Positions 17,085 to 38,291 of a DNA stretch of 64,000 bases are shown here, piece after piece; positions within the stretch are counted from its first letter, which is position 1; every line of letters begins with the position of its first letter. Origin of the DNA: Sarcomyxa edulis (taxonomy: Eukaryota > Basidiomycota > Agaricomycetes > Agaricales > Mycenaceae); contig QUOL01000001.1 in assembly GCA_009761415.1 (NCBI GenBank), positions 1,984,001-2,048,000 on the forward strand, given 5' to 3'. The translations under genes were made by a program, and so were the position numbers. Under the pieces are notes generated by a model. It had not been told where the DNA came from. It saw only the letters and a list, made by a program, of their open reading frames with translations, and ran no database searches.

Positions 17085-17110
17085 TATTTTGAACTAGAAA
17101 CTTTGACTCT
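17085..17110 (+). promoter_or_regulatory. Candidate self-priming binding site of outer element
   Basis: AGAAACT at 17096-17102, 11 nt after the LTR, is complementary to AGTTTCT at 16944-16950, close to the expected RNA 5' end. Tf1/sushi-type chromoviruses prime from their own RNA 5' end instead of a tRNA. Only seven bases match, so this is weak. Confidence 0.3.
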
Positions 17111-17168
17111 TACCATCGTCGACTTCCCCGCTCGGTTTGATCTCCCGAAACCTCTTGTCGACGATATA

Positions 17169-20100: not shown

Positions 20101-20805
20101 TACATTGGCTGTTCTTGCGAAAGACGGAGCGATTCGACGAACTTGTACGGGAAAAACGCGACGTGAAGTTTCACTACTCTTCGGCCAGTCCTGACATTCT
20201 GAAACTTGATACCATTGATGGAGATGAGTTTACATTGCCTGAAAGTGACTCGCAGGTTAGTGATTGGGAGGTGATCAGTGACCGATATGGCTTTTCTGAT
20301 GAGGATTTCCCAGAACTCCAATCCGTTTCAGATTCGTCTGACGAGAATGACACGGATGGCGGAGACGACTACCCAAATGATCTGAACTACGGTGAGGATG
20401 AAGATCCTGCTAACCGAATCCCAGGATTTTCGAACGGTTCGTTCAACCCTGGGGTGTCGACGCCGACTGCATTTTTGGGTGCAGTAGGAACTAAGAAGTC
20501 GAACACGATTCCTGCGGTGGAAGGGCTGGTTCTTCAACGTTCCGCGGCACGGATCAAGGACTTCAATCGCATCCTACCCAAGCCAATTGTCATTGTGGTA
20601 TATATCAACGGTGAACCTGCTCGGGCGTTACTGGACTCAGGATCTTTAGCCGACTTCATGTCTACTACGTTAGCAGACCAGCTTAAACTTGCTCGTGAAC
20701 CTCTCGCAAAGCCTTTACCTGTCCAGTTGGCTGTCTCGGGCTCACGCACTCATGTTAACTTCTCGACGACGGTGGATTTGCGGTACCAGGAGATCAACGA
20801 GACGC
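17169..20805 (+). CDS. Outer element gag and protease part of gag-pol (5' fragment)
   Basis: This is the 5' part of a single gag-pol frame, cut by the nested element. From ATG 17169 the first 560 residues are acidic and serine-rich. A gag-type capsid region lies at about residues 586-755 (KKWVREVRLFLRYSTLGTKK, AYKWYDRE, FRSEQRDRFDACMQRG). A CCHC zinc knuckle CFECESKDHLSKDC is near residue 838. The retropepsin site ALLDSGSLADF is near residue 1155. The frame reaches a TGA inside the inserted LTR at 20808-20810, so the present protein is truncated just after the protease start. It stays in frame with 38292-42964 if the insertion and one ACGC copy are removed. A 22-codon extension upstream lacks an ATG. 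Confidence 0.92.
20802..20805. repeat. Left target-site duplication ACGC of nested element
   Basis: ACGC precedes the left long LTR and matches 38288-38291 after the right one. Only four bases agree: the fifth would be G on the left against G on the other side of the right copy. Confidence 0.85.
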
Positions 20806-22553
20806 TGTGATGAGGACTGCGACGCTAGGAGTAGATGTGCTAGACTCCTAACTATAGTTCGCCTCTAGGGGGTAAGGTGACGTTTTCTCGGAGGGGATTT
20901 TACGTAGCGAGAAATCCTAATGCCCAGTGACTTGTGTTTGGATAATGTGTTCGTGAAACGGTGGTGAGGTGGGTATGAGATGATGAGGTGTAAGGTAAGC
21001 TTCGGACTTGTAGGATCGTTCTCGGTAGGCCGTTTAGAGGCTTCGGACAGCTATAGGTTCGTTCTTGGAAAACCTACGAAGGCCTCGGACAGCTATCGGA
21101 GAGCTGATCGATGCTTCGGACGGCTTATAAAACGTCTTCGGAAAGCTATCGAGGGCTTCGGACAGCTATAAGTTCGATTTTGGAGAACCTACGAGGGCCT
21201 CGGACAGCTTTTGGTGAGCTGACCGATGCTTTGTATAGCTATAAAATGTCTCCGGAGAGCTATCGAAGGTTTCGGACAGCTCTGGACTGATTTCGGAGAG
21301 CTTCGAGGGTTTCGGACAGCTCTGGACTGATTTCGGAGAGCTTCCTTTGTTCCGGGAGTGGTACTGCCGACTGAACCAAGTCCTTTTTCTCTTGTTTTGA
21401 CCGACTCCTGTAATCGTTCCTTGTCTCGGTTTCAGAAGTATGAGAAAGAGATAGAATTCCTATAGAGAGTAACTGGGTAGTTGGTCGATTCGGGTATGTT
21501 CCTCTGGTTCTCGTCCACACTGGTTCTATCTACCGTTCTCCATGTCTTATCCTACTTTATATATGAATTCCTTCCCTGTCCTTGCCTAATTCTTCACCCC
21601 GAGTGCCATCCCAAGGTCCCCAAGATCTCCAATGATGAAACAGATCCGGTATTGGTTTTGATGTGTCCGAACCTCGCTCAGTGTGAAAGGTTAGGGCCCG
21701 AGGTGTTCTCTGAAAGCGTTGCAAGGTGAATTTGTGAAGGGATGAAACATGTCCGAGTGAGCAGGATGATGGGGAGCTTCCGATAGATTTTTCCAAGATG
21801 CGACGGCCAAAGTTGTCCGAGAAGAGTGAATTTGATGTGGGTTGCTAGGCGGAGACCTGTAGTGTCTTTGTTAGCGGGCGATACCTCGCTTACAAGTGCT
21901 GTGTCATGTGATAAACACAGAGGGAAGAATATTCCGTAGCACCACTTGGTCAGGGTGGACGGAGGTCTTAATGAGGCGTCCAGATGCATGGAAAGGTGTG
22001 AATTGAGATCGCAATGTAAGGGGAATATGTCCGATTTGATAGGAAGAACAGCTCAGGGCAGCAAGCATCACGTTGGCGGTATGTCGACTGGTGGCAATGT
22101 TTTGTCGGTGAAGTATCTCTCGATGAGGTCTTCTAGAGGTGAAAGGGAACCTGCTGAAACGATTTGGGATCTGTCCGAAGGATCTAGGGGGCTGCGGAGA
22201 GGTGATCGAGTACATTGGGCCTTCGGTCAGGTGAAACAACGATAGGGAATTGGGTTCTGGCGGTAGATTTCCTTCGGAGAAGTTGTTCGTGTGTGATTTC
22301 AAGTATTCCGAAACGTTCTGAGACGTGACCGAAGGCGGGTTAGCGTTTGGTGAGTGGATGAAGAGGCCGCTTTCGGGGAGAAACCGTCAAGTAGCGGGTA
22401 CTTGGTGTCTTTCAGTGTCCGGTCATTCGAAAAGTAAGTCGTTTGTGGTGATGCCACCAGTATCTCTGTAGTTAGCTATGTCTGAGGAGTCGCATAAGAG
22501 TAGGTTGTTGTATAGTTGTCGATTCCTTGGCTGGGGATGCTGGCATCCTCACA
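20806..22553 (-). repeat. 3' LTR of nested element (1,748 bp)
   Basis: Its coordinates match the right copy exactly at an offset of 15,734. A TATATAAA box for the element's own strand lies at 21556-21563. About a dozen degenerate copies of a (T/C)TCGGA(C/A/G)AGCT unit cluster at about 21045-21345. Small open frames inside the LTR occur in both copies and are not genes. Confidence 0.95.
21045..21345. repeat. Degenerate TCGGACAGCT array inside the LTR
   Basis: The motif TTCGGACAGCT and variants (CTCGGACAGCT, TTCGGAAAGCT, TTCGGAGAGCT) recur about every 20-40 bases, with longer units that include GAGAACCTACGAGGGCCTC. The same array is at about 36779-37079. It lies downstream of the LTR TATA box in element orientation. 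Confidence 0.8.
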
Positions 22554-22573
22554 CTTCCTCCTAACTTTTAAAT
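22554..22573 (-). promoter_or_regulatory. Polypurine tract of nested element
   Basis: On the minus strand, AAAAGTTAGGAGGAAG runs directly into the TGTGAGGATG start of the 3' LTR, as expected for the plus-strand primer. It fixes the element's orientation. Confidence 0.85.
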
Positions 22574-22660
22574 ATCGACCGTCCCCGGTCGATCATCCGG
22601 AGGGCAAACACAACAGCGTGTCCGTGACCGAAACAGGGCAAGGACGACCGGCCAAGGACC

Positions 22661-22666
22661 TATAAA
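22661..22666 (+). promoter_or_regulatory. TATA box of cargo gene 1
   Basis: TATAAA lies 52 nt before the ATG at 22713. Confidence 0.65.
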
Positions 22667-22712
22667 TTCCAAGGTCAAGACAGCCAGGGCTTTCCTGAAA
22701 GCAACAAGCCAA

Positions 22713-23651
22713 ATGGATCCCATAGCAAAAGAACTCTTCTTTACGCGCTGCCTCGATCTGGACGGGATAGATGGCGATATTACGATGGCAACTTTCCTCG
22801 GATACCTGCGTAACAATATCCGTCCCATGGTTCACCTAGTCGTCAGCTGCATTTTTCAAGATGCTGTGGCAGACGTTCTCCTTCCGGAGTTCTCGAGTCA
22901 CGGTGTATACACGTTGAGAAAGCACGTTAAAATCTTGTGCCAGCACATGGTGAGTGCGTGTGCGCCTTTCAGGGGGTCCGTGCTAATTGCGAAGGTTAAG
23001 GTATTCATGCTCAGACTTAGATGGGTACTGAAGGGGAGGTGCATGGACGATACCACGGAGCCGTTTCCCAAGGAAGCAGTGACCGCCGTTTACCAGGTGC
23101 AGCGATGTGTCCACGTCGTAGGGTTTTCCGGGGATCAGGACGAGGACGAGGCACATAAGATCGACGTTATCTTGTACTTCATAGAAGAATATGCCCGCCG
23201 ATCGACATTTGGCGTCGCTTTCGATTACATCGAGGCGGACCCGCGTGGTCGGTTCCATGCGCATGCCGTGTTGAAGAAGCATCCATACAGCGGTCCCAGG
23301 GTACATCGAGATGGTACGATTAGTACGGACAGGGGCAACAGCCTCGAAGGGGAAGAGAATCCGGCTAACAACGAAGACGAAGGCATATCCGTCATAAGTA
23401 TTGCAACGGACGACGAGGACGAAGAAATGGAGGTGGCCGAGGTAGAAAGGGCCTTGTCCGGTAAGAATTCTGACACTTTAGCGGTGCGGCAACGAGCTGA
23501 TCGGAGAGGCACAGTCCAGCCACTCGCGAGCTTGGCAACACACGGGGCATTTCGCCTGCTTTTGGAGACGTTATCCGAAGAGGAGAGGAACGGTTTGATT
23601 GGCGGGGCAGCGATTATTGAACAGGGACTAAACGGCTTGTCGGGGGCATGA
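22713..23651 (+). CDS. Cargo gene 1: unknown protein, tandem paralogue family, acidic C-terminal extension
   Basis: I do not recognise any domain. Start MDPIAKELFFTRCLDLDGID; the family motif FLGYLRNNIRPMVHLV falls near residues 28-43. Exon 1 (22713-22949, 79 codons) ends ILCQHM. A GTGAGT...GAAG intron (22950-22994, 45 nt, contains CTAAT) is in frame and stop-free, so unspliced reading is also possible (312 residues against 297). The second exon gives FPKEAVTAVYQVQRCVHVVG, aligning with IPSE/VPSE segments of the sister genes. Unlike them it has a long acidic tail (DDEDEEMEVAEVE) and a C-terminal helix. It is read opposite to gag-pol and is the nearest cargo gene to the 3' LTR. Confidence 0.72.
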   Translation: MDPIAKELFFTRCLDLDGIDGDITMATFLGYLRNNIRPMVHLVVSCIFQDAVADVLLPEFSSHGVYTLRKHVKILCQHMVSACAPFRGSVLIAKVKVFMLRLRWVLKGRCMDDTTEPFPKEAVTAVYQVQRCVHVVGFSGDQDEDEAHKIDVILYFIEEYARRSTFGVAFDYIEADPRGRFHAHAVLKKHPYSGPRVHRDGTISTDRGNSLEGEENPANNEDEGISVISIATDDEDEEMEVAEVERALSGKNSDTLAVRQRADRRGTVQPLASLATHGAFRLLLETLSEEERNGLIGGAAIIEQGLNGLSGA

Positions 23652-23711
23652 GGCGGCGAGAAGAGGGAAGGGTTCGGAGAGGTGATCGAGGGCATGCAGT
23701 CTTCATGTACA

Positions 23712-23717
23712 TATAAA
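23712..23717 (+). promoter_or_regulatory. TATA box of cargo gene 2
   Basis: TATAAA lies 35 nt before the ATG at 23747 and about 60 nt after the stop of gene 1. Confidence 0.6.
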
Positions 23718-23746
23718 CGACGAGTCCCGTCGTGTTGAAAATCGAA

Positions 23747-24334
23747 ATGCCTGCCCGCAGTATGCAAATGGCTCGCGAGAGGCTCTGCGACTACTTCATG
23801 ACGCTGAACGTCCCGTCCTTTATTCGACCCGTCTTCTATCCGCACGAGGGCTTCGATGGATTCTTCCGCAAACGCCTTCGTATGATGTTCGGTGTCATCC
23901 AGGCGACGCTTCCCCATAGGGTGACAGCATTTCCCGATGACACCGATAGCGTTATCGGGCAGTATACACTGTCGAGGCGGCTTATGCGGTTTTTCGTCGA
24001 GAACGTTGTACGGGCTTCCACCGTTTTTCAGCGGGGCAACGCAGAGATACTAAAAAAAAATCCTTCTGCGCAGGAACTCATCGTTGCATACCGTCAGCGG
24101 GCCAGGACCGATGCCAACGCCGCCGAATTTAAAATTCCTTCAGAGGTATCCCGTATGATGGAGTTCAGTCTTATCGTTTATGACAAGGTCGGATTTCATG
24201 GGGACTGGGCCCTCAGCAGCGTCGGTCAGAGGAGGGAAATGCTTCAGTCACTAAAAGATGAGGCCGACGTTAACGCTTCATTGACTGGCGGGGCAAAGGA
24301 GTATCCCGAATTTGAGGACCTGGTGTTCTGGTAA
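23747..24334 (+). CDS. Cargo gene 2: unknown protein of the tandem paralogue family
   Basis: Exon 1 (23747-24007, 87 codons) starts MPARSMQMARERLCDYFMTL and carries the family motif GFFRKRLRMMFGVIQA. It ends RLMRFFVENV. A GTACGG...GCGCAG intron (24008-24073, 66 nt) is in phase 0 at the family position; it has no in-frame stop, so a 195-residue unspliced form is possible. Exon 2 begins ELIVAYRQRARTDANA and continues IPSEVSRMMEFSLIVYDKVG, FHGDW, and EYPEFEDLVFW at the end. The predicted spliced protein has 173 residues. No signal peptide or membrane span is evident. Function unknown. Confidence 0.72.
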   Translation: MPARSMQMARERLCDYFMTLNVPSFIRPVFYPHEGFDGFFRKRLRMMFGVIQATLPHRVTAFPDDTDSVIGQYTLSRRLMRFFVENVVRASTVFQRGNAEILKKNPSAQELIVAYRQRARTDANAAEFKIPSEVSRMMEFSLIVYDKVGFHGDWALSSVGQRREMLQSLKDEADVNASLTGGAKEYPEFEDLVFW

Positions 24335-25397
24335 GCAGGCGCCGTCGGTCTCGTTCTTTGGGCCCCTCAGAGGGATACTAATAGTCGGAAATTCGCATTT
24401 CAGAACGCACGCGTAGCGGGGAAGCTTTCCTGGATGTGACCGAGGGGGTTTTTGTCGTCGTTGGTACTTTAACGGATAAACACTCCTTTCGCGTGCCGCG
24501 TTTGAATATCTTGTAGTTTATGGAATGCACTGTCGGTTCGGAGGGCAACGACGGTCTCGGGCAGCCTCCCAACCTCCTTTATAAAGGGTACCGATGTCCG
24601 ATGATTCCACCCGCTGTGCGCAGACATTTTGAATCGCGGACAGTTCGTAACTCAGTCAGCGGCTCTTGATGAGAGGAAAGTTCAGAGGGAAGGCGAGTGA
24701 GATGAGAACGGAGAGAGGTTATTAATGCTTTCAGAGCTTTTCTCCTTTACAGTTTCGCTATATCGCTCAGTGGCCTGGTCATCATTTCGTTCTTCCGTAG
24801 CCTCGCCGTTATACGATGTCAGGATGATCTTCTCGTCCCGTTCAATAACTCGGCCGGCGCAAGATGCTGTTCTCTTCTTCAAGATGATGCAGTTGCATTT
24901 CTACAGCGCTCAAAGCCGACAGCCGTCAAGCGCCAGCGGCTTCATGAAGTCATGGCCGTTTAGATCGAGGTGGCTTGCGTCCTGATCGTCGTTGTTCTTA
25001 CGGCGCAGTTGAGACTGTGCGTGTTAATACGTGTGCGGGTGATGTGACCGCGATCTTGCGAAATCTTTGCGAAGGAACGAGACACGGCGAAGTGTATCAG
25101 GTGAGGCAAGGACCTGCGACAATAGTCGAAAAGATGGTCCCAGGGTAGCGGCACGACGTGGCGGCCAGCTCGTGTTCTTTTGCATGTGGCATTTGCAACC
25201 GTTCCGTGGATATTTATACCGAAGTACAGGCATTTTTACTGCTTCTGATAAGGCATGGTCCGGAAAATCCAACGGTTAACAGTTGCCGCACAGAGTCCGT
25301 TCGGACACCTCTTATCGGTCCGAGACGTCAGTCCTAAGTCCGATGAGGTATAAAGAACGCCAGCTGGCGCAGGGTAGCCATCGATATTCCGGCCAAA
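24335..25397. other. Cargo gap with an orphan TATA box and only a weak frame
   Basis: TATAAA at 24580-24585 sits in the same context as the other cargo promoters, but no clear family member follows. A two-exon model from ATG 24668 with a GTGAGA intron into the frame ending at 24985 is conceivable, yet it lacks the family motifs. The stretch may be a decayed cargo unit, or regulatory. Confidence 0.4.
25349..25354 (+). promoter_or_regulatory. TATA box of cargo gene 3
   Basis: TATAAA lies 49 nt before the ATG at 25398. Confidence 0.65.
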
Positions 25398-25993
25398 ATG
25401 TCGCATGTCGTTAGTTCATCGTTTACTCAAGCTCTCCGAGACGAGTTTTTGTCGTATGCCCATCCTCCTGAAGTTCTTGCCGGGGATTTCGCTCCTACCG
25501 AGGGCTTTACAAACTTCCTTCGATTCCGCCTCCGCCCTATGGTGGAGATCGTCGAGCGGGGGTACGCGGCTTATCTTATAACGAGTTCCCCGAGAGACAC
25601 CGTTGAACCGATCATATGGAGCGAGACGAAAGGCTGGTTCCGCATCGTGTTGGATCATTTGGTAGGCGTCCGTGGTTCACTCGGTGAGCTTCGGAGTGTT
25701 AATCTTACGTCTTCTAGGATGCCATTCTACGGTTTAGGGATAGAGTGACGGCAATTGGCCGAGGAGACGAGGCCGTGGTTCCGTCAGAAGCGTTGCGCCT
25801 CGCAAGCATGGTGCAGCTATTCCTTATCCATCACGGAGTTGAGCTCGGGTACGATGAAGATGTACTTGTGAAGAGGAAGGATTTAACGAAGGAGTTCCTT
25901 TGGTCTATCGTCCCTGTAATGCACCGAGAGGCAGTTGCCGTAGAATTTCCGGAGTACGTGATACGGTTGGCAGGGGAGGGTACGGGCAAGTAG
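25398..25993 (+). CDS. Cargo gene 3: unknown protein of the tandem paralogue family
   Basis: Exon 1 (25398-25661, 88 codons) starts MSHVVSSSFTQALRDEFLSY and holds the clearest copy of the family motif, NFLRFRLRPMVEIVERG. It ends WFRIVLDHL. The phase-0 intron GTAGGC...TTCTAG (25662-25717, 56 nt) carries stops, so splicing is required to join exon 2. Exon 2 begins DAILRFRDRVTAIGRGDEAV and continues VPSEALRLASMVQLFLIHHG, then KEFLWSIVPVMHREAVAVEF and PEYVIRLAGEGTGK. The spliced protein would have 179 residues. This required intron is strong evidence that the family position is a real intron. Function unknown. Confidence 0.75.
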
Positions 25994-26031
25994 AAGGGGT
26001 GTCCGATAGCTGAATAGCGCGATATTTTTAG

Positions 26032-26037
26032 TATAAA
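26032..26037 (+). promoter_or_regulatory. TATA box of cargo gene 4
   Basis: TATAAA lies 47 nt before the ATG at 26079 and 39 nt after the stop of gene 3. Confidence 0.65.
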
Positions 26038-26078
26038 GAGGGTGAATCAATTCCTCCGTACAGGTCACCGCAGAGCCC

Positions 26079-26797
26079 ATGAAAATTATGGAACCCCTAC
26101 ACCAAGTCCTTTTGAACACTCTTGCCCAAGAGGCAGCAACGTTCGATATCCTTGATCGTGACGGAATGATTCACTATCTCAGATGCCTCCTGCGCCCCGC
26201 TGTCGGCCTCGTTGCCGATTTTATATTCCGTGAACTCGGGCCCGATGGCTACTTCGTAGCTTTAACTGGTCGCGAGAGGGTTCCCTACTACTGCAATGCG
26301 CAAATCGTGTTGCTCCTCGCGGTACGTTGGTCTAAACTCGACCCTTATCGATCTTATCGTTTAACGGGTTTTCACTTGATCGGTAACAGGTCCACTTCCA
26401 CAGCCAGTGGCAGGACCTGAACAAGCAGGACAGACGATTATACACGATTCCGTCCGAGATGAATAGAACGATCAGCCATTTGCGCTTGATTTGTCGGGCT
26501 GTCCGAATTCAGCCAGCAAGCCCCATTCATTGGGAGGTCGAAGCCGTCCGAGCTCTTACCGAGCTTAGCATACGCGCCCTGGCAGCTTACGCGTCGGCTG
26601 AAGATGCCTTCGATTGGCCGGAGTACGAGAAGCCCGGGGTTGCCGCGTTGGAAAGCGCGATGACCAGATCGATCCGTCTCGATCTCCTCGAAAGGGTCGT
26701 ACCTAAGCGCGTTGTCGTAGTCGAGGGGGAGTCCGAAGGTGCAGGATATAGCGACGCAGAGGACTGGCCAGGGTCGGAGGAGGAAACGACGGAGTAA
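26079..26797 (+). CDS. Cargo gene 4: unknown protein of the tandem paralogue family
   Basis: Exon 1 (26079-26321, 81 codons) starts MKIMEPLHQVLLNTLAQEAA and carries the family motif HYLRCLLRPAVGLVADFI. It ends AQIVLLLA. The phase-0 intron GTACGT...GTAACAG (26322-26389, 68 nt) contains stops. Exon 2 begins VHFHSQWQDLNKQDRRLYTI, continues PSEMNRTISHLRLICRAVRI, and then LTELSIRALAAYASAEDAFD with WPEYEK. The C-terminus is acidic (DAEDWPGSEEETTE). The spliced protein would have 216 residues. It shares the order motif, intron, IPSE helix and aromatic/acidic end with genes 2, 3 and 5. Function unknown. Confidence 0.74.
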
Positions 26798-26841
26798 AAT
26801 AACGCTCCCAGAATCATATGCCACTTATTGTAGTCTGCATA

Positions 26842-26847
26842 TATAAA
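26842..26847 (+). promoter_or_regulatory. TATA box of cargo gene 5
   Basis: TATAAA lies 57 nt before the ATG at 26899 and 45 nt after the stop of gene 4. Confidence 0.65.
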
Positions 26848-26898
26848 CCTCCCCGAATCGTTTGCTCCGTTCCTTAAGTCAGTAAAGTCCCATCAACG

Positions 26899-27834
26899 AT
26901 GTCCTTTATTCTCCGTTTGTCTGCAAATCGCTTTCCCGAGAATCCCCAGGATCCCGACCTCGAAAATGAGAGGTCTCCGACCACCATCTGGTCTCGGTCA
27001 ATTCGTAGCCTCCTAGGCATCGTTCATCTCTCCGTAAATGGGAGGTGTCCGACGGACGTTCCTCTCGAGGAAAGGCTCTGGGTCAGGACCCTCCTCACCC
27101 GGATCGTCAATTACGTAGTAAGCGGCTCGCTTGTTTTTCCTTCATCGTTCCCCTTTCAACATCGTCCGTCCAGCATCAAGCTATGAAACTCCGTGCCTCC
27201 GAGGCCATTAAATCAGGCTCTTGGGATACCATTCCAATTCCCGCTCAAGCCACCACTACCGTCGCCATGCTCGAGTTCTTTCTGAAGAACTTTGGTTTCG
27301 AGGGGGACTACGTTGCGGTCAACGTCAGGAACGTTGGGTATCTTTTATCGTCGGTGAAGAGCGAGATGGTTGCCCAGGCGCGTTTTACATATTTCTTGGT
27401 TCTCATTCTTCGTTGATTTATTTCTTTTCGTCCTTTTCTAGGCCGGATACGTCGGAACCGCCCTGGATTTCGATGGTTTTGAGTCGTCCGATGCGTACAA
27501 CGTGTACGGCGTGCTTCCCGAAATGAAGCAGCAGCAAGTCAACGACCTACTCAGATCGCGGGCGGCTTTCGTTCCCAATCCTATTCTTCCTGCTCCTCAA
27601 TATCCTCTTGTCCCCTTCGTCGCGAGGTTTCCCGTAAAAGAGGGCTTTGAAGAGGTCCGTCTTCACGGAGACGTTCCCGATCCTCGTCTCGGAGGTCTCC
27701 ACCAAGTTCATTTCGGCCCTGGAGCTTTCGGACAGGTAGATCCTCGGAACGCTGCGACGCGTGGGAGAGGTCGCGGAGGGGCAAGGGCTAATCGTCGAGG
27801 AGCTGGAGCGGTACCTGATACTACCATTCTGTAG
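26899..27834 (+). CDS. Cargo gene 5: unknown protein of the tandem paralogue family with RGG-like tail
   Basis: Exon 1 (26899-27117, 73 codons) starts MSFILRLSANRFPENPQDPD and has a weaker motif, SRSIRSLLGIVHLSVNG; it ends LLTRIVNYV. The phase-0 intron GTAAGC...TCCAG (27118-27173) sits at the family position. Exon 2 begins HQAMKLRASEAIKSGSWDTI, then PIPAQATTTVAMLEFFLKNF with GFEGDYVAV. A second intron (about 27369-27441) leads to AGYVGTALDFDGFESSDAYN. A proline-rich stretch and a basic glycine-rich tail (TRGRGRGGARANRRGAGA) follow, suggesting nucleic-acid binding. Spliced length is about 268 residues. The donor of the second intron (GTTGCC) is non-ideal, so that join is tentative. Function unknown. 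Confidence 0.7.
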
Positions 27835-28508
27835 ACCGTCCGATGAGTTTCCGATTCCTTGCCTCTGTAAAATAAATGCCTGATAACAGGCGCATAATTC
27901 GTTCATAATTTTGCATAGTGTGAGACCCAGCGTCTCGGTCTCCTCGTAAATCTGTAAAACGTTGTGAGTTGCATACTTTTAATCATATCAGCGCATAATT
28001 GGGTTCGGTCTGCGTCAGTAGATCCGCTGGCCAGCCAGATCTACCGTCTCCGAACCCCGCATAGTCGTTTTCTTCCAATTTCTTTCGATCGTTTGTCGTC
28101 CGTGGTCTTTTTCGCAGTATTTCGTCACTGTGTACAGGAGAGCCGTCGCTCTCTATCCGTTCCGTATTTGAGGTTATAAGCCCCATGCGCCAACCATACT
28201 ATTCTTTCTTGCTTGTCTCGTATTTCGGTTCTTCGTATTTCTTCCTTTCGTGTTCTTCCAATTTGACGTTCGTATTTTGACTTCCAGGTTTAATTCATTC
28301 CCCCTCCCCTTTTTCTTCCACCTTATAGACCATCGTTCTTCTTTCTTGTGAGCGGTTGTTTACCAAAGGCTTTATCGTTTCGGCAATCGATTCGGCTTCT
28401 TTCCACGTGGCTGGAGATATCCGGGCTGAGATTTATCTGGGAGAGTTCTTTTGTTCTCGAAACCTCTTTTCGTTACAGTATCCTTTTTCACTTCGTCAGG
28501 AATCAGAT
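27835..28508. other. Spacer between cargo genes 5 and 6
   Basis: The stretch is rich in T/C runs, especially 28080-28340, and holds no family motif. It may contain the promoter and an untranslated first exon of gene 6. A TTATAAG sequence near 28174 and TTATAG near 28323 are weak TATA candidates. Confidence 0.4.
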
Positions 28509-29976
28509 ATGTCGTCCACTACCCGTACGTCGACTGGAAGGTTCAACCGGTCAATTTATGGTTTGTGAACTCCTTCATCGTCTATGTCGGTGTGCTAACG
28601 AATCTTATTCAGATATTCTGGATGGCACCGTTGCGCAACCTCTCTTGTCCGCCCTCTCTGGCGATGTCGATTTACGAAACCTCTCGGCTAGTCAGCGGAG
28701 CGCCCTTGTATCCACTAGACGAATTCCCGGGTCACTTTTTGGCGTGTACAGGCAGCTAATGCCTGATCGTATCACGAAATCATCGAAGGAATTGAGATCC
28801 ATGATGTTTAACCTTTTATCGATCGGTTATCCCAGCACGCCACCAGCTTGCTTCCACAATTTCCCGGAGCTGAATTCTTCTGTCATAAAGTTCATCAACA
28901 ATTTTCCCTACGTTCCCGACTTTATTCTTGAAGCTATTTCGTATAATCTTCCGCGCACCATGGTTATTGCTAGCTGCGATCCTGAGCTTTCGAGCGACGA
29001 ACCAGCCGATTCTTGTAAGTACTCCTCCCGGGCTCGTAGGTTAATTATTAAAACTGCTCGCGCCCGAATGGTTTAGCCACTAGTGATGTCGAACCCGAAA
29101 GTGACTCCCCAAGGAAGAAGCAGGCCAGGCGGTCTACCCGTCGGTCGAAAAAAATCACAGGCTCCCCTGTACCCAGAATCACCGTGCTTCCAGCAGCTGA
29201 GGCTCATCGAGCACTTTCCTCGGCACGGCAGAATCAGAGAGGCAGGAAGAACCGTCTCTACTTTATTCGAGCCAGAGTCGGTCCTTCCTTTGCTTCATTT
29301 CATATTTTTAGCCGGCTGACTCCCTTCTTTCAAGGACTACCGATGCTCCGAATGTATTCGCGATGATGTTCCTTGCCTCGGTTTCAGATCTCGGCCATGC
29401 GACTTCTGCGAAGGAAAGCAATCCGTTTGCAGTCTCGCAGATGGAGAAGATAATCTCAGTAAGCCTTTTCTTCAGGGCGACGGGTATAATTGAAACCGTA
29501 GAAATTTCCCTTTTTTAGGCGAATCAATGGCTCGCGCTACCGGTTGCATCAAGGTCCTGAAGAAGCCCGAGATGGTTTCAAGTGACGTATCTGGTGAAGC
29601 TAGAATCCTAGCAAGCCCAATCGCCAGTTCGTCAGCCCGTCCCGATTTTCATAACGCCGCCCCTGGCCCGTTTCCGCGCATCGACCCAGGGCGTCCAATT
29701 ATTCGCCTGTCTCCGGAACATCATCCTCAACCGCAGTCTGAATCCAGTATCGCACGCAGCGAGAAGATGGATGCCGTCGTTCGCGATTCCAGGTCCCGCC
29801 TTCTTGATGGTGCCAGGGATTCGTCTGCTTTCGGCGTGCTAAGCCCCGTTGTCGTCGATCATATGACCCCGATTATTGATCAGGTGATGAAGGACATTAG
29901 TTTGGCATATCGCGTGTTAATCGAGGATGCTATCGACGAGGCCGATGAAGAGGAGATCGCAATGGCGTTTTTGTAA
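28509..29976 (+). CDS. Cargo gene 6: multi-exon unknown protein with Cys-rich segment
   Basis: This gene differs from the five paralogues. Exon 1 (28509-28560, MSSTTRTSTGRFNRSIY) joins through a 52-nt intron to 28613-29014, which encodes DILDGTVAQPLLSALSGDVD and NNFPYVPDFILEAISYNLPR. A GTAAGT intron (29015-29076) leads to an acidic/basic segment DVEPESDSPRKKQARRSTRR resembling a nuclear-localisation region. A later exon gives RPCDFCEGKQSVCSLADGED, with the cysteine pattern C-x2-C-x6-C. The last exon (29520-29976) ends in an acidic helix EDAIDEADEEEIAMAFL with TAA at 29974-29976. The join between about 29253 and 29387 is uncertain. It converges on pol with about 150 bp between stops. Function unknown. 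Confidence 0.62.
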
Positions 29977-30126: not shown

Positions 30127-33100
30127 TCAAAAAGTCTTTTTCGTTGCCTCGCTGGTCCTACGTTCGCCCCGCCCCATCTGCTCCGGTATTAGTGTCGTGC
30201 CCTCGTGCTCCGGTCTTCTAGGAAACTGCCAAAGTCTCGTCCTATATGTCCCTGGTAGAGAGTCGTCCCCTGGCTCCACCAAGCTGTACTCGTCCGGTGT
30301 ATCATCATCCGCCATGTCATCCAGCTGTTTCGTAGTTTTACCCACTAAAGTCGTGACTTGAATAGTGATTTCGTTCCTCCTGAAGTAGGGTACCAATCGG
30401 TGCGCCGCAAAGCGATGTTCCGCGATCGCACCATTGACTTCGGAGAGTATATAACTCCCCGACTTCGTTTGTCGGACAACAACCATCGGACCTATATATC
30501 GGGGCTTCATCTTGTTATTCAGCTCCTTCTCGATCCTTGTGTTTCTGATGAGTACAAGCCTGCCCGGGGCAAACTTGAAGTCGTAAATCTGTCCTTCATA
30601 TTTTTTCAAGAACTGCTCCGCCGACTCGAGCCTAGCCTTATACTTGTCTCTCTGTATTTTGGATAGCTCCTTTTCCCGTCTTTGAAGCTTCATCGCTCTT
30701 CGCGTTATGAGTTCTCCGAAGTCCATTTCTTCGTCGATGAACGGGTGCATGTACGTTGACTGTTCCAAATCAAACGGATGTATCGCCTGGACACCGTGCG
30801 CTATGTAATATGGCGAATACCCCGTGGATTTCTGAATTGTAATCCGCTCGGCCCAGAATATAGCGTGCGCTGCTTTCGGCCAAATCGACTGGTTCCCATC
30901 GCACGACTTAATGAGCGATTCTCGGACATCGTAATGCTTTCGCTCGATGACCCCTTGCGCTTGTGAATTATAACCCGAAATTCGTATATGATTGATTCCG
31001 TACTGCTTTTTGAGGTGATCGACCGCTTTGACCCAAGGTTTCCCATTGTCCGTGACGATCTCCATTATACTTCCCCATCTGCATAGGACATCTTCGAAGA
31101 TGAAGCTGGCCAGATTAATAGCACTCTCATTTTTCAGCATTCTCCATTCCGGATATGAGCTGAGCGAGCATCGTCCATGAGCAATCACATGAAAGCCATC
31201 AACTGTAGGAAGGTGCATTGTGTCCATATAGATTTTCCCGAATAGCGGAAACGGAACCGCCACGGTTGGAGGAATGTGGATCTTCGAACTGTTTCGGAGT
31301 TGGCATTGGTGACATGTCCTGACGAACCAGGACACATCTCTGCTCATACTTGGCCACCAAAACCTATCCATCAGGCTGACCTTCGTTGTCCAAGTTGCTT
31401 TATGGCCGAATTTATCGTGGAGCTCGGACATTATTTGAATCCTCTTCTCCGGTGGGAGTACGATTTTGTGTTTTAGCTGTCTGTCCTTTCTCCATAATTG
31501 CCCATTCAGGACAAAGAAGTGAGCCGCTTTCTTCATAAATGCTTTGAATTGTTTATCGGACAATCCTTCGGGCCTGCTCGCTGTTTCAAGGTACTCAGTT
31601 ATTCGTACAAGTTCCTCGTCTTGTTTGATAGCAAGAGTTGATTGGGGAATAACCACGTTCGGGACAACTTCGCCAATAAGGACTGCCGATACTTCTCTTC
31701 TTCGGCCAGGTAGCGAGGCGAAATATGCCTTTGCTATTGCTTCAGGAAAATCGCGCTCATCTATCATTAATCGATGAGGCGGCACCGTATCCAGTATTGA
31801 CCGAGCTCTGTTTTCGTTCCAGTTTAGCATTTCGACCGAGAATCCGCACGCCCTATCGATCCATTCTTCGACGTCGTCTTCCTCTTCCGAGTCTTCCGGG
31901 GCCTTTCGTCGTCTAGATAGACCGTCCGCCGGCCCCATTGCCGTTCCTGGAATGTGCTCTAGTTTGAACGTGAACAGCTGGATAGCTGCTATCCATCTAT
32001 TGATAGCCGCATTAGGTTGTATATCCGGATTATTTAGCATTCCTTTGATATATTTCGCATCTGTTCGGACCGTCAGGTTTTTAACCCCGACTATGTATAG
32101 CCTATAAGCCCTGAGGGCCCTGAATAAGCCATAGAGTTCGATTTTTGCCTGGGAGTATCCTTGCTCGCGTTCATTCCACGTAATAGAGCCAAATCTAGAC
32201 GGATATTCGATCCCGTCTTGTCCGAGCTGTAGCAGGACACAGCCCATCGCCCTCCAAGATGAATCAACAACTAGATATACCATCCTTTCCGAGTGGTAAT
32301 CTATTGCTCGGAGTGCCGGAGAGGTTATTAAGAGATGTTTGAGCGTTTCCATGGCTTTTATCTGTGACAATCCGAAGACGAAATCGACGTCCTTTCGTGT
32401 AAGCATGACCAGCGGCCGCGCATGTAGCGAGAAGTTCTTTATGAAGATCCTCATTAGTCCGAGCGTTCCTAGGAAGGCTCGGACATCTGTTAAATCTTCG
32501 CAGGGTGGCCAATCTTTGATTTTCTGGACCTTTGTTTCATCCGGGACTCTGCCATGCACGTTACAGCGGTGGCCAACGATGACGACCGATGGTACTGCCA
32601 AAAATGATTTCTTGGCGTTGAACGTTCCTCCTGCGTGCCTTATTCGGTGAACAATTCGATTGACATTCACCAGGTGTTCCCACACGAATCTCCTTATCCC
32701 TGGGTTGTCCGGTATTGTCTCGTATTCCCCGGTTTCCGATTGGTAGTACGTTGCTGGTCCCTTCACCGGACAATCGTCCACGAACGGTTGTGTGATGTTC
32801 GGAATCTCGTCTTGCAGAATGAACGAAACATCTCCCTGTTGTATCTGGACCGAGTTAGTGTATCCTTGTGGAAGCCTTGTTAGCCTAAAAGTGCCCATCG
32901 GCGTTTGGAACGTCGTAAGATCCCTTGAAGGTATAGCGAGGATTCTGTGGTCGAATCCCACAAACAGATCGAACATTCCATATATCGTAGCCCCACCGAA
33001 GGACTCCGCATAGACTTCGACGATCGGCGGGCAGCCCGCGTCCTTTATCGTTACAGCATTAAGAGGCTGTAAGTCGTGCACAATCCTTAACGATACCCCA

Positions 33101-33905
33101 TCCTTCTTTGGCACGCAGAACCACCTCGACCTGTACGATGAATTCGATGGTTCATATACTCCTGCCGCTATCTTGTCTTTGACTGCCTGTACCACCTTAT
33201 CTCGTATCCCCGGTGGTATCGGAATGTTTTTATAGCTCCAAGGGGTGTGTTCGAGAACTGGGAGCTTAATCGGTTCGAAGTAGTCCGATCTGAAGTGGCC
33301 TTTTTCCATCTCGTTCCAGGCGAACGCCGTTTCGTGCGTTTTGATTATATGATGGACTAGTTTTTCTTCCTCAGGCCATAAAAAACCGTCCGGGTTGATA
33401 TTTTGTTCCATCATCCTTTCCATCGTATATCTCGTGCCTGGTTCGAATCGCGGCGGATGTGTTGGTAGCTCAGGCAGCGTTTCCAGCGGGTCCGACGGGA
33501 ACTTTCGTACTATCCTGTATTCCTCTGGTAGCGTAGCAGCGACCGGTTGGGTCCTTTTATCCACCGGTTTGTACTTCTTCCCCTTCTTTCTCTTCTGCGG
33601 TATTTTGTTGTCCGAAAGCGTCAGGCATTGCGTATTTTCATTTAGTATACAATTTTCACATGAGGGCTGATTGAGGGTTTGCTCCGCTCCCTCCGTTTCC
33701 GTGTTTTCGTAGTGCGTTCCGGTAAATATGTTACTCGCTGGGTGGCCCAGTCTGGAAGGGGAAAATCGTGTCGTCGAGTTCGTTGTTACATTATGATCGT
33801 TAATTTCAGTAGTCTGGGTATCGTCGGTCACCGTAAAATACTTGACCGATATGCTTTTTCGAAGGTCCGTCTCGACTACTGACGGCCTCCGACCGGGCGA
33901 AAACC
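30127..33905 (-). CDS. Nested element pol (reverse transcriptase, RNase H, integrase), -1 frame to gag
   Basis: Pol makes the cDNA and integrates it. The frame has no ATG at its start; it overlaps the end of gag in the -1 frame and is open back beyond the GGGTTTT site at 33900-33906. Reverse transcriptase motifs: VHDLQPLNAVTIKDAG, FRLTRLPQGYTNS and catalytic FVDD (about 32768-32790). RNase H shows VVDSSWRAMGCVL and an ELYGLFRAL helix. The integrase has HHCC zinc binding (GHKATW, CHQCQ) and a D,D,E triad in MDTMHLP, TDNGKPWV and VIERKHY. A GPY/F-like module (KPRYIGPMVVVRQ) follows. There is no chromodomain. FVDD replaces the commoner YxDD but keeps both aspartates. The frame is uninterrupted, so pol looks potentially active. 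Confidence 0.92.
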
Positions 33906-36509
33906 CACCGATGTCGGTGAAGATCGTTTTGGTTTGACGAACGTTGGAACTGTGACAACCTTCCCTGTATTAGGGCAGGTCAAGGTCAGGTCCTGGTTTC
34001 CGGTCGTGTAGTCCTTGGTAACGCATCCCGTTAGTTTAAAGAATGGTCGTCCCATTAGTATTTCGAACGGAGCGTTTTCCACCACATGGACCTTCAGATA
34101 GATTTCGAGTCCTCCAATATTAAATTTAAGGTCCTCGATAAGCCCCGTAGTCGTGTCATGCTGGCTATTGGCCGATTCCATAGTGATTTTATGGTCCGGC
34201 CTCAAGTGTATTCCGAGTTTCTGCCAAAGTCCCTTGTTCATGGCAATTATTTCCGACCCTCCGTCCAACACACATTCGACCTTTTCATCCTCGATAGTCG
34301 GGTAGATTACTCTGAGTTTTTCAATGGATGAGCCCGTGAGGAGAATTTCTTCATCCGGTCCGTTCGGATTTTCGTACCGAAGGATATAACTGGAGTCCGG
34401 TTCATCGATGTTGTCCGGATTAATCGACTCGAGTCGTCCAACCGTCGGAATCCTTTTAGTAGACACCAGTTCCTTGTACTGTTTTCTGACATCTAGGCTA
34501 AGCGAAAGTAATTCTCTTTGTGAGATGGATATTTGAGTATCAAGTGATCGGTTCAAGACCCTTTTTGCCAACTCCGGATCTTCTATCGGCGTTGAGAATT
34601 TATACTGCGGACCAGTTTGTACCTGCTTCCTTCCTTCGGTCGCATCCTTTTCGAATTCTACCGTTTTCTTTTTTGGAGGAACTTGGCTGACCGGATCGTC
34701 AGGAAGCGGCTGAGGTCGTCCGGGGGGTCCTTTCCTTCGCATAGCAGGTACAGGTTTCTCCGTAGGTTCCAGCGGTTTGCCATTACGGGTTTTTCTTGCT
34801 TGTTCGTTTGCTAGGACTTCTCCGATGTCTTCTTCTTCTTCCTCGATCTCCTCGATCCTTGATTCTTTGTAGTACGAACTAGAAGTTTCTCCGGACGATG
34901 CGAACCACATGGTAGAGGCATGGGGAGGTGCATCGCGTACAAAGTTGACGCCATTTATAATTGACCCCGGATACATTTCATGGTACCTGTTGATTCTGGC
35001 AGCCAAGTTGATTCCTTCTATATTTGAAGGAACCCATGCTCCGTTCGGAAGTACGACTTTTCCGTTCATGTTTCGCATGCATTTCCCATCTCTGATAAAT
35101 TCGGCGACCTTCGGGCAATCTCGAATGAAGTGAGACGTGTCCGAACAGAACGCACAAACCGAGCCGTTTCCTGGACCGTTTTGAGTTCTTCGGACAGGGG
35201 ATCGATCGAGGAATGGGTTAGGTGCCCTTCCCTGCGCCGGGACATAGCCTTGGTAACGGTTATTGTACGACATGGCCTGGTTTGCCCCCATGTTTGATAA
35301 CGTGGCTGCCAACGTACTCATGCTTGCTGCCAACTCCCTATTAAGCGCCTTTATTTCCCTCGACATTTCGTCTATTTCTTGTTTAACTACCGGATCCATT
35401 CCAGTCGTCTGTGTTCCGCTGTAAAGAACCTGTCCTCCTAGGATATGTTGGCCTTCCTTGTAGAGGTCATCGATCATATATGGTTCGTCGAGTTCCTGGT
35501 CGGGCTTCTTGATTTTTAGTCGGGCCATTAGCTGGACCAGGAACTGCGGGTGGAGTCCTTTTACGTAGAGGCGATTCTCTTCTTTCGCAGAGATCTTGTT
35601 TTGGTCTTTGAGATGATGCGATATCCTGGTGAAAGATCGATGGTATTTTCCAAAGTCCGATTTGGTGTTAATCGGTATTGCTGCTTCTTTTGCAAGCAAG
35701 ACCTCTAGATCATTGAGCGTATATTTCTTTTTCTCGTCTGATCCGGGATAAAGCTTCCGGACTTCGGATTTGAAGGCGTCCCAGTCTTTTGCGGTAACCA
35801 CCTTCCAAAGCGATTCGTCTTCCGCCCCAAGGTAGTACCTAGCCATGTCGATTTTCTCTTTATCCGACGCTTTCCCAGCCGCCGTGCATACTTGGTCTAT
35901 GTCTTCGAAATACCTTGTAACAGATTCGTCGAGACCATCAAATTTTGGAGCGTCCCTGCTGGTCCGGGTGGGCGGTGGTCTTGACGTCATTGTTGGAAGG
36001 TTTTTCTGTATTCGGGGTTGGGATATTCGAGGGGTTATGCGATTCGATGGTAACGGTATCTGAGACGGAGGAGGCGGCTGAGTCTGCGTTTGGTCTTGTG
36101 TTGAAGTTTGGCGGGAAGGGATGGATAGGATTCGAGACTCCAATTGGAGGTGAGATAAGGGTTCAGCTGGTAAACTGTTTGACGGTTCGTTTCCCTGGGC
36201 TAGGCTAACCGAGTCTTCCGAGGGCGTAAGGGAGGCCTCTGTTGAAATAGTGTCTGATTCAACGGAACGCGGGAGCAATTCTTCGTCTGAGGTATCTATG
36301 TTGGAAGGAGGTGTTTGGGATGGCAACCAATCAAGATTTATTGATGGTACGTCCGATAACGGTGACGATTCGGGCGGAGTCGTTTCTTCGGAAAGGTCGC
36401 TTTGTGGATATTTGACGGATAAATGTGGTATACGGGAAGTTTGAGAGAAAGCTTGAAGCTCTGCTTCAGCTAAACGAGTTTGGGCTCGGGTAACTCGTCT
36501 AGTAGACAC
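33876..36509 (-). CDS. Nested element gag-protease polyprotein
   Basis: The 877-residue frame starts at ATG 36509, just inside the 5' LTR (MSTRRVTRAQTRLAEAELQA). A Ser/Thr/Pro-rich N-terminus precedes a gag capsid-like region (SRDAPKFDGLDESVTRYFED, ARYYLGAEDESLWKVV, about residues 185-330). A coiled stretch EIDEMSREIKALNRELAASM follows. A CCHC zinc knuckle CAFCSDTSHFIRDC is near residue 455. A C-terminal retropepsin-like fold has CVLDGGSEIIAM with DGG at the active-site position instead of DSG or DTG, and an NAPFEILMGRPFF flap-like end. It stops at 33876-33878 and would be linked to pol by -1 frameshifting. The frame is intact. Confidence 0.9.
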   Translation of the reverse strand: MSTRRVTRAQTRLAEAELQAFSQTSRIPHLSVKYPQSDLSEETTPPESSPLSDVPSINLDWLPSQTPPSNIDTSDEELLPRSVESDTISTEASLTPSEDSVSLAQGNEPSNSLPAEPLSHLQLESRILSIPSRQTSTQDQTQTQPPPPSQIPLPSNRITPRISQPRIQKNLPTMTSRPPPTRTSRDAPKFDGLDESVTRYFEDIDQVCTAAGKASDKEKIDMARYYLGAEDESLWKVVTAKDWDAFKSEVRKLYPGSDEKKKYTLNDLEVLLAKEAAIPINTKSDFGKYHRSFTRISHHLKDQNKISAKEENRLYVKGLHPQFLVQLMARLKIKKPDQELDEPYMIDDLYKEGQHILGGQVLYSGTQTTGMDPVVKQEIDEMSREIKALNRELAASMSTLAATLSNMGANQAMSYNNRYQGYVPAQGRAPNPFLDRSPVRRTQNGPGNGSVCAFCSDTSHFIRDCPKVAEFIRDGKCMRNMNGKVVLPNGAWVPSNIEGINLAARINRYHEMYPGSIINGVNFVRDAPPHASTMWFASSGETSSSYYKESRIEEIEEEEEDIGEVLANEQARKTRNGKPLEPTEKPVPAMRRKGPPGRPQPLPDDPVSQVPPKKKTVEFEKDATEGRKQVQTGPQYKFSTPIEDPELAKRVLNRSLDTQISISQRELLSLSLDVRKQYKELVSTKRIPTVGRLESINPDNIDEPDSSYILRYENPNGPDEEILLTGSSIEKLRVIYPTIEDEKVECVLDGGSEIIAMNKGLWQKLGIHLRPDHKITMESANSQHDTTTGLIEDLKFNIGGLEIYLKVHVVENAPFEILMGRPFFKLTGCVTKDYTTGNQDLTLTCPNTGKVVTVPTFVKPKRSSPTSVGFRPVGGRQ
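33900..33906 (-). promoter_or_regulatory. Candidate -1 ribosomal frameshift site GGGTTTT
   Basis: In the gag frame it reads G GGT TTT, the X-XXY-YYZ pattern of -1 slippery sites, 21 nt before the gag stop. Pol is in the -1 frame here. The downstream CGCCCGGTCGGAGGCCG is GC-rich and could fold. Confidence 0.65.
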
Positions 36510-36518
36510 CTTTTAAAT

Positions 36519-36537
36519 CCCCTCGCGGTGGGCTCCA
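36519..36537 (-). promoter_or_regulatory. tRNA primer-binding site of nested element
   Basis: TGGAGCCCACCGCGAGGGG on the minus strand begins two bases inside the 5' LTR. TGG pairs with the CCA end of a tRNA. I cannot name the tRNA without a search. Confidence 0.75.
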
Positions 36538-36539
36538 GT

Positions 36540-38287: not shown

Positions 38288-38291
38288 ACGC
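38288..38291. repeat. Right target-site duplication ACGC of nested element
   Basis: ACGC follows the right long LTR and equals 20802-20805. Taking out the element and one ACGC leaves the outer gag-pol frame open. Confidence 0.85.

What the first reader, a model, noticed from the sequence alone, without database searches (positions are those of the whole stretch)
22554..27834. A tandem array of five diverged paralogous genes carried inside an LTR retrotransposon, antisense to gag-pol
Between pol and the 3' LTR of the nested element lie five plus-strand genes (22713, 23747, 25398, 26079, 26899). Each has a TATAAA 35-57 nt before its ATG, a 73-88 codon first exon with a shared motif of the form (F/Y)LRxxLRPxVxxV (FLRFRLRPMVEIV, YLRCLLRPAVGLV, FFRKRLRMMFGVI, FLGYLRNNIRPMVHLV, and a weaker IRSLLGIVHL), and a second exon with a (I/V/F)P(S/K)E-type or IPAQ helix and an acidic/aromatic end. 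I recognise no known domain. Extra antisense ORFs are known in some plant Ty3/gypsy lineages, but I know of no element with a five-member intron-containing gene array. I infer that this may be an accessory system of the element.
Basis: partly seen in the sequence, partly recalled or inferred. Interest (0 to 1): 0.93.

Follow-up and report, generated by a model that had tools for sequence, protein, structure and literature searches.

The report
Gene array inside a fungal retrotransposon
A jumping gene in what looks like a fungus carries its own row of five related, intron-containing genes on the opposite strand; evolution is preserving them, some copies carry this row but no copying machinery of their own, and the row may help the element recognise its own DNA.

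Summary
Observation confirmed. Between pol and the 3' LTR of a young nested Ty3/gypsy-type element (identical 1,748-bp LTRs) lie five antisense genes, each with a TATA box and a phase-0 intron at the same aligned place; profiles show that they are paralogues. The array recurs in this genome (25 complete and 5 partial matches), all five genes under strong purifying selection (pN/pS 0.02-0.17). A sister element (pol 84% identical) has the same gene order plus one more paralogue, but array proteins only about 27-50% identical. Thirteen of 30 matches belong to a class read as LTR-array-g6-LTR without gag-pol; its arrays are equally constrained. Each family is enriched for its own short motif (TCGGACA; GCCGATCG in the sister), with exceptions reported. 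Best reading: an accessory module acting on the element's own DNA, working like the VANC anti-silencing system of plant VANDAL transposons. The module is shown; the mechanism is inferred (odds below one half). Antisense extra ORFs are a known kind; I found no record of this multi-gene form, or of gag-pol-less carriers, in nine searches of one open-access library. New variant of a known kind.

The parts
36540..38287 (-). 5' LTR of the inner element
   Evidence: identical to 20806-22553 over 1,748 bp; TSD ACGC on both sides
36520..36539 (-). presumed primer binding site TGGAGCCCACCGCGAGG, also present in the gag-pol-less copy read in full
   Evidence: tRNA match not tested
33876..36509 (-). gag (with aspartic protease), 877 aa
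   Evidence: Pfam gag-asp_proteas 5.3e-08
30127..33831 (-). pol (RNase H, integrase zinc-binding), 1,234 aa
   Evidence: Pfam Integrase_H2C2 3.2e-17, RT_RNaseH 1.1e-14
20806..22553 (-). 3' LTR; TCGGACA 11 times, partly in a degenerate tandem repeat at 21085-21344
22713..23651 (+). g1: exons 22713-22949 and 23001-23651; acidic tail
   Evidence: intron in the same place as in the sister; pN/pS 0.09
23747..24334 (+). g2: exons 23747-24007 and 24074-24334
   Evidence: pN/pS 0.02
25398..25993 (+). g3: exons 25398-25661 and 25718-25993
   Evidence: pN/pS 0.08
26079..26797 (+). g4: exons 26079-26321 and 26390-26797; acidic tail
   Evidence: pN/pS 0.17
26899..27834 (+). g5: exons 26899-27117, 27174-27377, 27442-27834; second intron GC-AG; Arg/Gly-rich tail
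   Evidence: pN/pS 0.11
28161..28161 (.). point where type C copies stop matching the window at DNA level
   Evidence: both type C copies examined end their match here
28509..29976 (+). g6: about five exons (boundaries approximate), Cys motif C-x2-C-x6-C-x7-C-x2-C-x6-C at 29344-29430; three deeply diverged classes among copies
24335..25397 (+). gap in the place where the sister element has its extra paralogue; keeps a TATAAAG at 24580 but no gene was recognised
   Evidence: tblastn of the sister gene against the gap: E 5.6 only

Best explanation
SHOWN: the inner element carries an antisense accessory module of five paralogous, intron-containing protein genes (plus g6), kept by purifying selection both in copies with gag-pol and in copies without, and evolving faster than pol between element families. 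SHOWN WITH EXCEPTIONS: each of the two array-bearing families is enriched for its own short motif. INFERRED: the proteins are made from their own antisense promoters, return to the nucleus and recognise the element's own DNA through these motifs (most densely in the LTR), keeping the element expressed or free of host silencing, i.e. a fungal LTR-retrotransposon counterpart of the VANC anti-silencing proteins of plant VANDAL transposons. Which protein reads the motif is open: g6 has zinc-cluster-like spacing and both motifs contain TCGG, but the array proteins are what stays constant together with the LTR among A, B and C copies. Because the introns are antisense to the genomic RNA, they would survive retrotransposition.
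For: Genes: 25 complete array copies. pN/pS is 0.09, 0.02, 0.08, 0.17, 0.11 for g1-g5. In 25 copies frameshifting gaps occur in one copy only (L025, in g2 and g5) and a late g1 stop is shared by two (L009, L020). Selection without gag-pol: type C copies alone give 0.08, 0.01, 0.09, 0.16, 0.11, and among alleles seen only in type C 21 of 60 are nonsynonymous where 68% is expected, P 1.1e-7. Fast turnover: sister pol 84% identical, array proteins 27-50% in the same order. Motif: TCGGACA 11 vs 0.3 expected in the LTR, 7 vs 0.7 in pol, 6 vs 1.0 in the array; sister GCCGATCG 14 vs 0.5 and 9 vs 0.4. In a blind scan of all 7-mers TCGGACA ranks first in LTR, internal region and pol, and GATCGGC in the sister at -log10P 22.7 against a shuffled maximum of 6.4. 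In a sister pol piece not used to find the motif, CGATCGG 4 vs 0.5 (1 of 500), while the homologous window piece has TCGGAC 5 vs 1.3 (9 of 500). Precedent: VANC21 binds YAGTATTAY, enriched in its own family, and related families have other motifs (PMC5735166, passages).
Against: No binding, expression or chromatin data. The motifs were found and mostly tested on the same sequences. In the blind scan the array alone shows no significant motif and pol is marginal (5.3 against a shuffled maximum of 5.1); one control locus (L032, with inverted repeats) also exceeds its null. g6 has no TCGGAC, gag only 4 vs 2.2, and the outer, array-less element has TCGGACA 6 vs 1.6 (0 of 300 shuffles). The held-out sister pol piece is not enriched for GCCGATC itself (1 vs 0.38), and has TCGGACA 2 vs 0.38. 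Here the motif also sits in coding DNA, unlike VANC21's, which is mainly non-coding. Pfam Zn_clus is below its cut-off for type C g6, absent for the window's g6 and for the sister's, whose Cys spacing differs. Retention in type C fits a cis-acting role, but a diffusible DNA-binding protein would act on all copies.
Confidence: 0.4

Rival explanations
1. The array proteins act on element RNA or particles (nuclear export, packaging, cis-preferential Gag partners), like retroviral accessory proteins, rather than on DNA.
For: g5 ends in an Arg/Gly-rich tail; g1 and g4 have acidic tails (sequence). The poor g2 model is all-helical. Type C copies keep LTR, presumed PBS and array, so selection could act on RNAs that carry the module. 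Vicient and Casacuberta propose retrovirus-accessory-like roles for plant antisense ORFs (PMC7264820, parts 1-2 of 3 read).
Against: No Pfam match for g1-g5 (g2 only RavJ_Peptidase at 0.051, below cut-off) and no solved-structure match to the family profile. Family-specific DNA motifs are unexplained by it.
Confidence: 0.27
2. The module works at cell level as cargo: a killer/antidote or host-benefit system that favours any nucleus carrying it, with gag-pol only as transport.
For: Gag-pol-less LTR copies keep only the array and g6; paralogous array; rapid divergence between families.
Against: 25 near-identical complete copies in one genome is more than a cell-level benefit needs; no toxin-like or secreted feature was recognised; no paralogue outside the two element families in the listed hits of three own-genome searches.
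Confidence: 0.12
3. Antisense transcription itself, not the proteins, is what matters (for example dsRNA regulation).
For: Antisense transcripts of LTR elements can feed silencing (PMC7264820).
Against: Selection is on amino acids: pN/pS 0.01-0.20 in every class and gene tested; splice sites and start codons are kept.
Confidence: 0.03
4. Chance ORFs or decaying captured host genes without function.
For: No recognised domain.
Against: Codon constraint in 25 copies, same order in a sister element, no host source gene seen.
Confidence: 0.01

Closest known systems
Antisense additional ORFs (aORF-3R) of plant and fungal Ty3/gypsy elements: Grande gene23, RIRE2, Retand TRP28, Boty brtn
   Same: [quoted passage not shown] Retand ORFs are predicted to bind DNA, Retand has family-specific tandem repeats, and recently active non-autonomous Retand elements exist (PMC7264820 parts 1-2; PMC11963269 passages; PMC8365987 passages).
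   Different: Five paralogous genes (six in the sister) with a shared intron, plus g6; no TRP28 or other Pfam domain; a class of LTR copies that has lost gag-pol but keeps the whole array under selection.
VANDAL/VANC sequence-specific anti-silencing system (Arabidopsis DNA transposons)
   Same: Fast-evolving element-encoded proteins, and a short motif enriched within its own family and different in a related family, partly in tandem repeats (PMC5735166 abstract and passages; PMC10398659 abstract).
   Different: LTR retrotransposon, not a MULE-type DNA transposon (recalled class); all-helical paralogue array with no Pfam match; motif also in coding DNA; binding and demethylation not shown.
Non-autonomous LTR elements (LARD/TRIM kinds, recalled)
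   Same: LTR-flanked, no gag-pol, presumably mobilised in trans.
   Different: They keep at least six intact, constrained protein genes instead of non-coding or degraded insides.
Giant or accessory-ORF retroelements (bdelloid rotifer LTR elements with ORF3, Terminons, planarian Burro)
   Same: Extra ORFs beyond gag-pol (PMC5408684, PMC6431247: passages only).
   Different: In the passages seen there is no antisense paralogue array; element types differ.

Membership tests
aORF-3R-bearing LTR retrotransposon | protein ORFs between pol and 3' LTR, antisense to gag-pol | tested here: met
aORF-3R-bearing LTR retrotransposon | present and conserved in most copies | tested here: met
   25 complete copies, pN/pS 0.02-0.17
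aORF-3R-bearing LTR retrotransposon | transcribed from an own antisense promoter | not testable with these tools
   TATA boxes conserved, no RNA data
Retand lineage | antisense TRP28 domain (PF04195) | tested here: not met
   no such Pfam match for g1-g6
VANC anti-silencing family | homology to VANC (the paper names DUF1985 once) | tested here: not met
   no Pfam family for g2-g5 at E<=1 or for g1 (unspliced ORF) at E<=0.1
VANC-like mechanism | short motif enriched in its own family and different in a related family | tested here: met
   exceptions: outer element also TCGGACA 6 vs 1.6; array alone not significant in the blind scan
VANC-like mechanism | motif mainly in non-coding DNA | tested here: not met
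   densest in the LTR but also in pol coding DNA
VANC-like mechanism | protein binds the motif and removes silencing marks | not testable with these tools
   needs ChIP/EMSA and methylation data
Zn(II)2Cys6 zinc-cluster proteins (g6) | C-x2-C-x6-C-x5-12-C-x2-C-x6-8-C (recalled pattern) | tested here: met
   the only hit in 70,569 aa of six window frames; type C piece has the same spacing; the sister's has x8 in the first loop
Zn(II)2Cys6 zinc-cluster proteins (g6) | Pfam Zn_clus above its cut-off | tested here: not met
   19.3 bits vs cut-off 21 for a 56-aa type C piece, best stretch 12 residues; none for window or sister
Non-autonomous LTR element (type C copies) | LTR pair without gag-pol | tested here: met
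   one copy read LTR to LTR and parts of two more: no gag/pol by tblastn; five LTR pairs 9,933-10,019 apart; no family pol listed within any of 13 type C loci; a 146-nt gag start remnant in one (C8)

The most novel reading that the evidence does not exclude
The module is a self-recognition system of LTR retrotransposons: a co-evolving set of motif-reading proteins and motifs scattered through the element, so valuable that LTR copies without gag-pol persist and spread by carrying the module alone, with exchangeable g6 types as specificity variants. It would be the first such sequence-specific anti-silencing system in a retrotransposon and in fungi.
Probability: 0.28. Interest if true: 0.92.

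Novelty: new variant of a known kind. Interest (0 to 1): 0.78.

Why it matters
Antisense extra ORFs in LTR elements have been known for decades without a function. Here they are numerous, intron-bearing, measurably under selection and separable from gag-pol by nature itself, and each family carries a candidate DNA target. This makes the open question 'what do antisense accessory genes do?' directly testable with binding and chromatin assays. If the DNA-recognition reading holds, sequence-specific anti-silencing would have arisen in a fungal retrotransposon independently of plant VANDALs. If not, gag-pol-less LTR copies that keep at least six genes still need an explanation.

Tried and rejected
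Structure: the AlphaFold model of unspliced g2 (12 rows) had mean pLDDT 43.4, pTM 0.28, all-helical; not used for fold searches. The second structure job was not used.

Array in other gag-pol families of this genome (pol 50-53%): stretches downstream of pol from three loci (L032, L033, L034) gave no credible array hit (best E 0.07).

Host source genes: g4, g2 and a sister g5 searched in the whole genome found only the two element families in the listed hits; candidate lists are capped, so this is not proof of absence.

A sister-type extra gene in the window gap 24335-25397: only E 5.6.

'The array spread over long-diverged backbones': considered after g6 showed A-B dS 0.68 and type C pS 0.45 against about 0.05 for the array, then dropped, because gag is 98-99% identical between A and B copies and pol 95% or more in 13 of 13 other full-length hits. 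The diverged block is local to g6 and the adjoining end of pol.

The palindrome GCCGATCGGC as sister motif: 20 sites genome-wide against 15 for its reversed control; the motif is GCCGATCG-like, not this palindrome.

A first blind motif scan stopped with an error after one segment and was rerun.

Literature: nine searches ran; in their listings none described a multi-gene antisense array or array-only LTR element. The library lacks most subscription papers and bioRxiv.
Full report
WHAT IS THERE. The window lies in an unnamed 35.6-Mb genome. That it is a fungus, and probably an agaricomycete, is inferred (short GT-AG introns, a transposase-like ORF recognised from memory in L035) and was not tested. 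A Ty3/gypsy-type element with identical 308-bp LTRs (16777-17084, 42999-43306) is interrupted by a second element with identical 1,748-bp LTRs (20806-22553, 36540-38287) and the target duplication ACGC. The inner element has gag and pol on the minus strand.

GENE MODELS. Splicing joins a first exon of 73-88 codons to a second exon in phase 0 in all five genes, at the same aligned position, and the same holds for the six genes of the sister element. Donor and acceptor dinucleotides are kept in 25 of 25 complete copies; the second intron of g5 has a GC donor in 25 of 25. TATA boxes are intact in 25 of 25 copies for g1-g4 and 24 of 25 for g5. A sixth antisense gene, g6, follows at about 28509-29976; its exon limits are approximate.

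PARALOGY. With two-sequence profiles, 7 of 15 pairs exceed the highest of 75 shuffled controls (5.0%): g2-g3 97.8%, g1-g3 85.7%, g2-g5 63.5%, g1-g5 30.9%, g1-g2 29.2%, g1-g4 23.4%, g2-X 9.4%; the other 8, including g4-g5 (0.2%), do not. Pooling g1, g2 and g3 brings in g4 (90.0%, 134 columns), g5 (90.6%, 146 columns) and the sister's extra gene (27.2%), each with 0 of 40 shuffles as high. A plain search with g2 also reaches the sister's g3 region at E 0.003-0.005. With the shared intron position I regard common descent as shown. No Pfam family matches g1-g5 (g2 reached RavJ_Peptidase only at 0.051, far below cut-off), and no solved structure matches the family profile.

COPIES AND SELECTION. 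The array DNA has 30 matches in this genome: 25 complete at 97-100% identity (window included) and 5 partial, two of them halves of one broken copy; further fragments exist. Over the 25 complete copies pN/pS is 0.09, 0.02, 0.08, 0.17 and 0.11 for g1-g5. Placing the same changes at random gives 42.1, 22.9, 23.0, 27.1 and 50.4 nonsynonymous alleles; observed (with stops) are 23, 4, 9, 16 and 25, never reached in 1,000 simulations. Defects are few: frameshifting gaps in one copy (L025, in g2 and g5), a stop at codon 244 of g1 in two (L009, L020), 3-nt gaps in g1 in two.

THREE CLASSES. Beyond g5 the copies part company. By the g6 region 5 are type A (window, L002, L004, L019, L023), 10 type B (g6 about 78% identical at DNA level) and 13 type C (g6 unalignable as DNA, about 36% as protein); two fragments (L029, L030) are unassigned. 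Both type C copies examined lose similarity to the window at position 28161. g6 stays under constraint: pN/pS 0.12 among 13 type C copies (pS 0.45), 0.03 within A, 0.08 within B; A against B dS 0.68, dN 0.065. Gag is 98-99% identical between A and B copies and pol at least 95% in 13 of 13 other full-length hits, dropping to 92-94% next to g6. So g6 is a local, old polymorphism in an otherwise young family.

COPIES WITHOUT GAG-POL. In one type C copy read from LTR to LTR (C34, L009+L036) the inside is array, g6, a short spacer and the same presumed PBS, with no gag or pol by tblastn; the same holds for the parts read of two more (C40, C5). Five type C loci have both LTRs in the listed hits, 9,933-10,019 bases apart, against 15,734 in the window, and no family pol hit lies within any of the 13. 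One (C8) keeps a 146-nt remnant of the start of gag. LTR pairs with equal scores suggest recent insertion. In the 11 complete type C arrays pN/pS is 0.08, 0.01, 0.09, 0.16 and 0.11. Many variants are shared with A and B (90 of 165 synonymous and 24 of 77 nonsynonymous alleles), so arrays are exchanged or of recent common stock; but alleles seen only in type C are also constrained (21 of 60 nonsynonymous, 68% expected, P 1.1e-7). Gag-pol can be supplied from elsewhere; the array apparently cannot.

A SISTER ELEMENT. A family with pol 84% identical (82% over 600 residues, third-position identity 0.38, i.e. saturated) has the same genes in the same order and orientation, plus one more paralogue between g2 and g3, but array proteins only 27-50% identical. 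Its gene in the g6 position has a different Cys spacing. Eight loci of its g2 and g3 counterparts appear. Relatives in other sequence sources are 70% (g2), 79% (g1), 61% (g4), 53% to g5 and 71% to the sister's g5, so both families occur elsewhere.

MOTIFS. TCGGACA occurs 11 times in the LTR where dinucleotide shuffles give 0.3, 7 against 0.7 in pol, 6 against 1.0 in the array; host stretches are at or below expectation (1 vs 2.5, 3 vs 3.4). The sister has GCCGATCG 14 against 0.5 and 9 against 0.4 in its two halves, and no TCGGACA excess (0 vs 0.8, 2 vs 0.9). In a blind scan of all 7-mers with look-alike contexts removed, TCGGACA ranks first in LTR, internal region and pol (-log10P 9.2, 7.5, 5.3; shuffled maxima 6.2, 5.6, 5.1), and GATCGGC scores 22.7 in the sister (maximum 6.4). 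Part of the LTR sites lie in a degenerate tandem repeat. A sister pol piece not used for discovery has CGATCGG 4 against 0.5 (1 of 500), while the homologous window piece has TCGGAC 5 against 1.3 (9 of 500). Against this: the outer, array-less element has TCGGACA 6 against 1.6 (0 of 300), although the motif does not stand out in its blind scan; the array alone is not significant there; control locus L032 exceeds its null with another word; g6 has none and gag few; GCCGATC itself is not enriched in the held-out piece. Discovery and most tests used the same sequences.

G6 AND THE ZINC CLUSTER. The Cys spacing of g6 fits the recalled Zn(II)2Cys6 pattern and is its only match in 70,569 residues of the six window frames. 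A type C piece reaches Pfam Zn_clus at E 0.0013, below the curated cut-off and over 12 residues in its best stretch; the window and sister pieces do not. Zinc-cluster proteins are recalled to bind CGG triplets, which both motifs contain. In the solved-structure search the best of 7 weak hits is not a zinc-cluster protein (E 0.31); Pho7 and LEU3 follow at E 1.2 and 2.9. This is a lead, not membership.

MECHANISM. The module is element-borne, translated as far as selection can tell, needed even by copies without gag-pol, and turns over between families together with a short motif. Sequence-specific self-recognition explains these together and has a precedent in VANC (PMC5735166, outline with abstract and passages read; PMC10398659, outline and abstract). 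Element-borne anti-silencing in fungi is also suggested for DNA transposons with TET/JBP genes (PMC12730594, search listing only). Binding, silencing and expression are not shown, so I give the mechanism 0.4 and an RNA- or particle-level role 0.27.

NOVELTY. [quoted passage not shown] PMC11963269, PMC8365987, passages). Retand is closest: antisense ORFs predicted to bind DNA, family-specific tandem repeats and non-autonomous members. What I found in none of nine searches is a paralogue array with a shared intron, or LTR copies that dropped gag-pol and kept the array. I call it a new variant of a known kind.

Noticed in passing
window 16777-17084, 42999-43306 (gag 17103-20810, pol 38261-42964): The outer Ty3/gypsy-type element also has identical LTRs, so both insertions look recent; it has gag-pol only and no array.
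   Followed up: partly
window 28509-29976 and type B/C loci: g6 exists in three deeply diverged classes (A-B dS 0.68; C about 36% as protein) inside otherwise 97-99% identical elements; an old polymorphism or imported block of unknown meaning.
   Followed up: partly
window 27378-27441: A GC-AG intron (second intron of g5) keeps its GC donor in 25 of 25 copies.
   Followed up: yes
window 22554-27834 and copies: Synonymous diversity (0.037-0.064) exceeds intron and intergenic diversity (about 0.02-0.04) among copies; the non-coding parts may be constrained or mutate differently.
   Followed up: partly
G000 C13:460864-464049: A pol about 50% identical to the window's lies between pol and array of a type A copy; from spacing, an element nested there.
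   Followed up: no
L035 about 10634-11050: An ORF resembling KDZ-type transposases (recalled, not tested) lies downstream of a type C copy.
   Followed up: no
window 24335-25397: The gap between g2 and g3 keeps a TATAAAG at 24580 without a recognisable gene, in the place of the sister's extra paralogue.
   Followed up: partly
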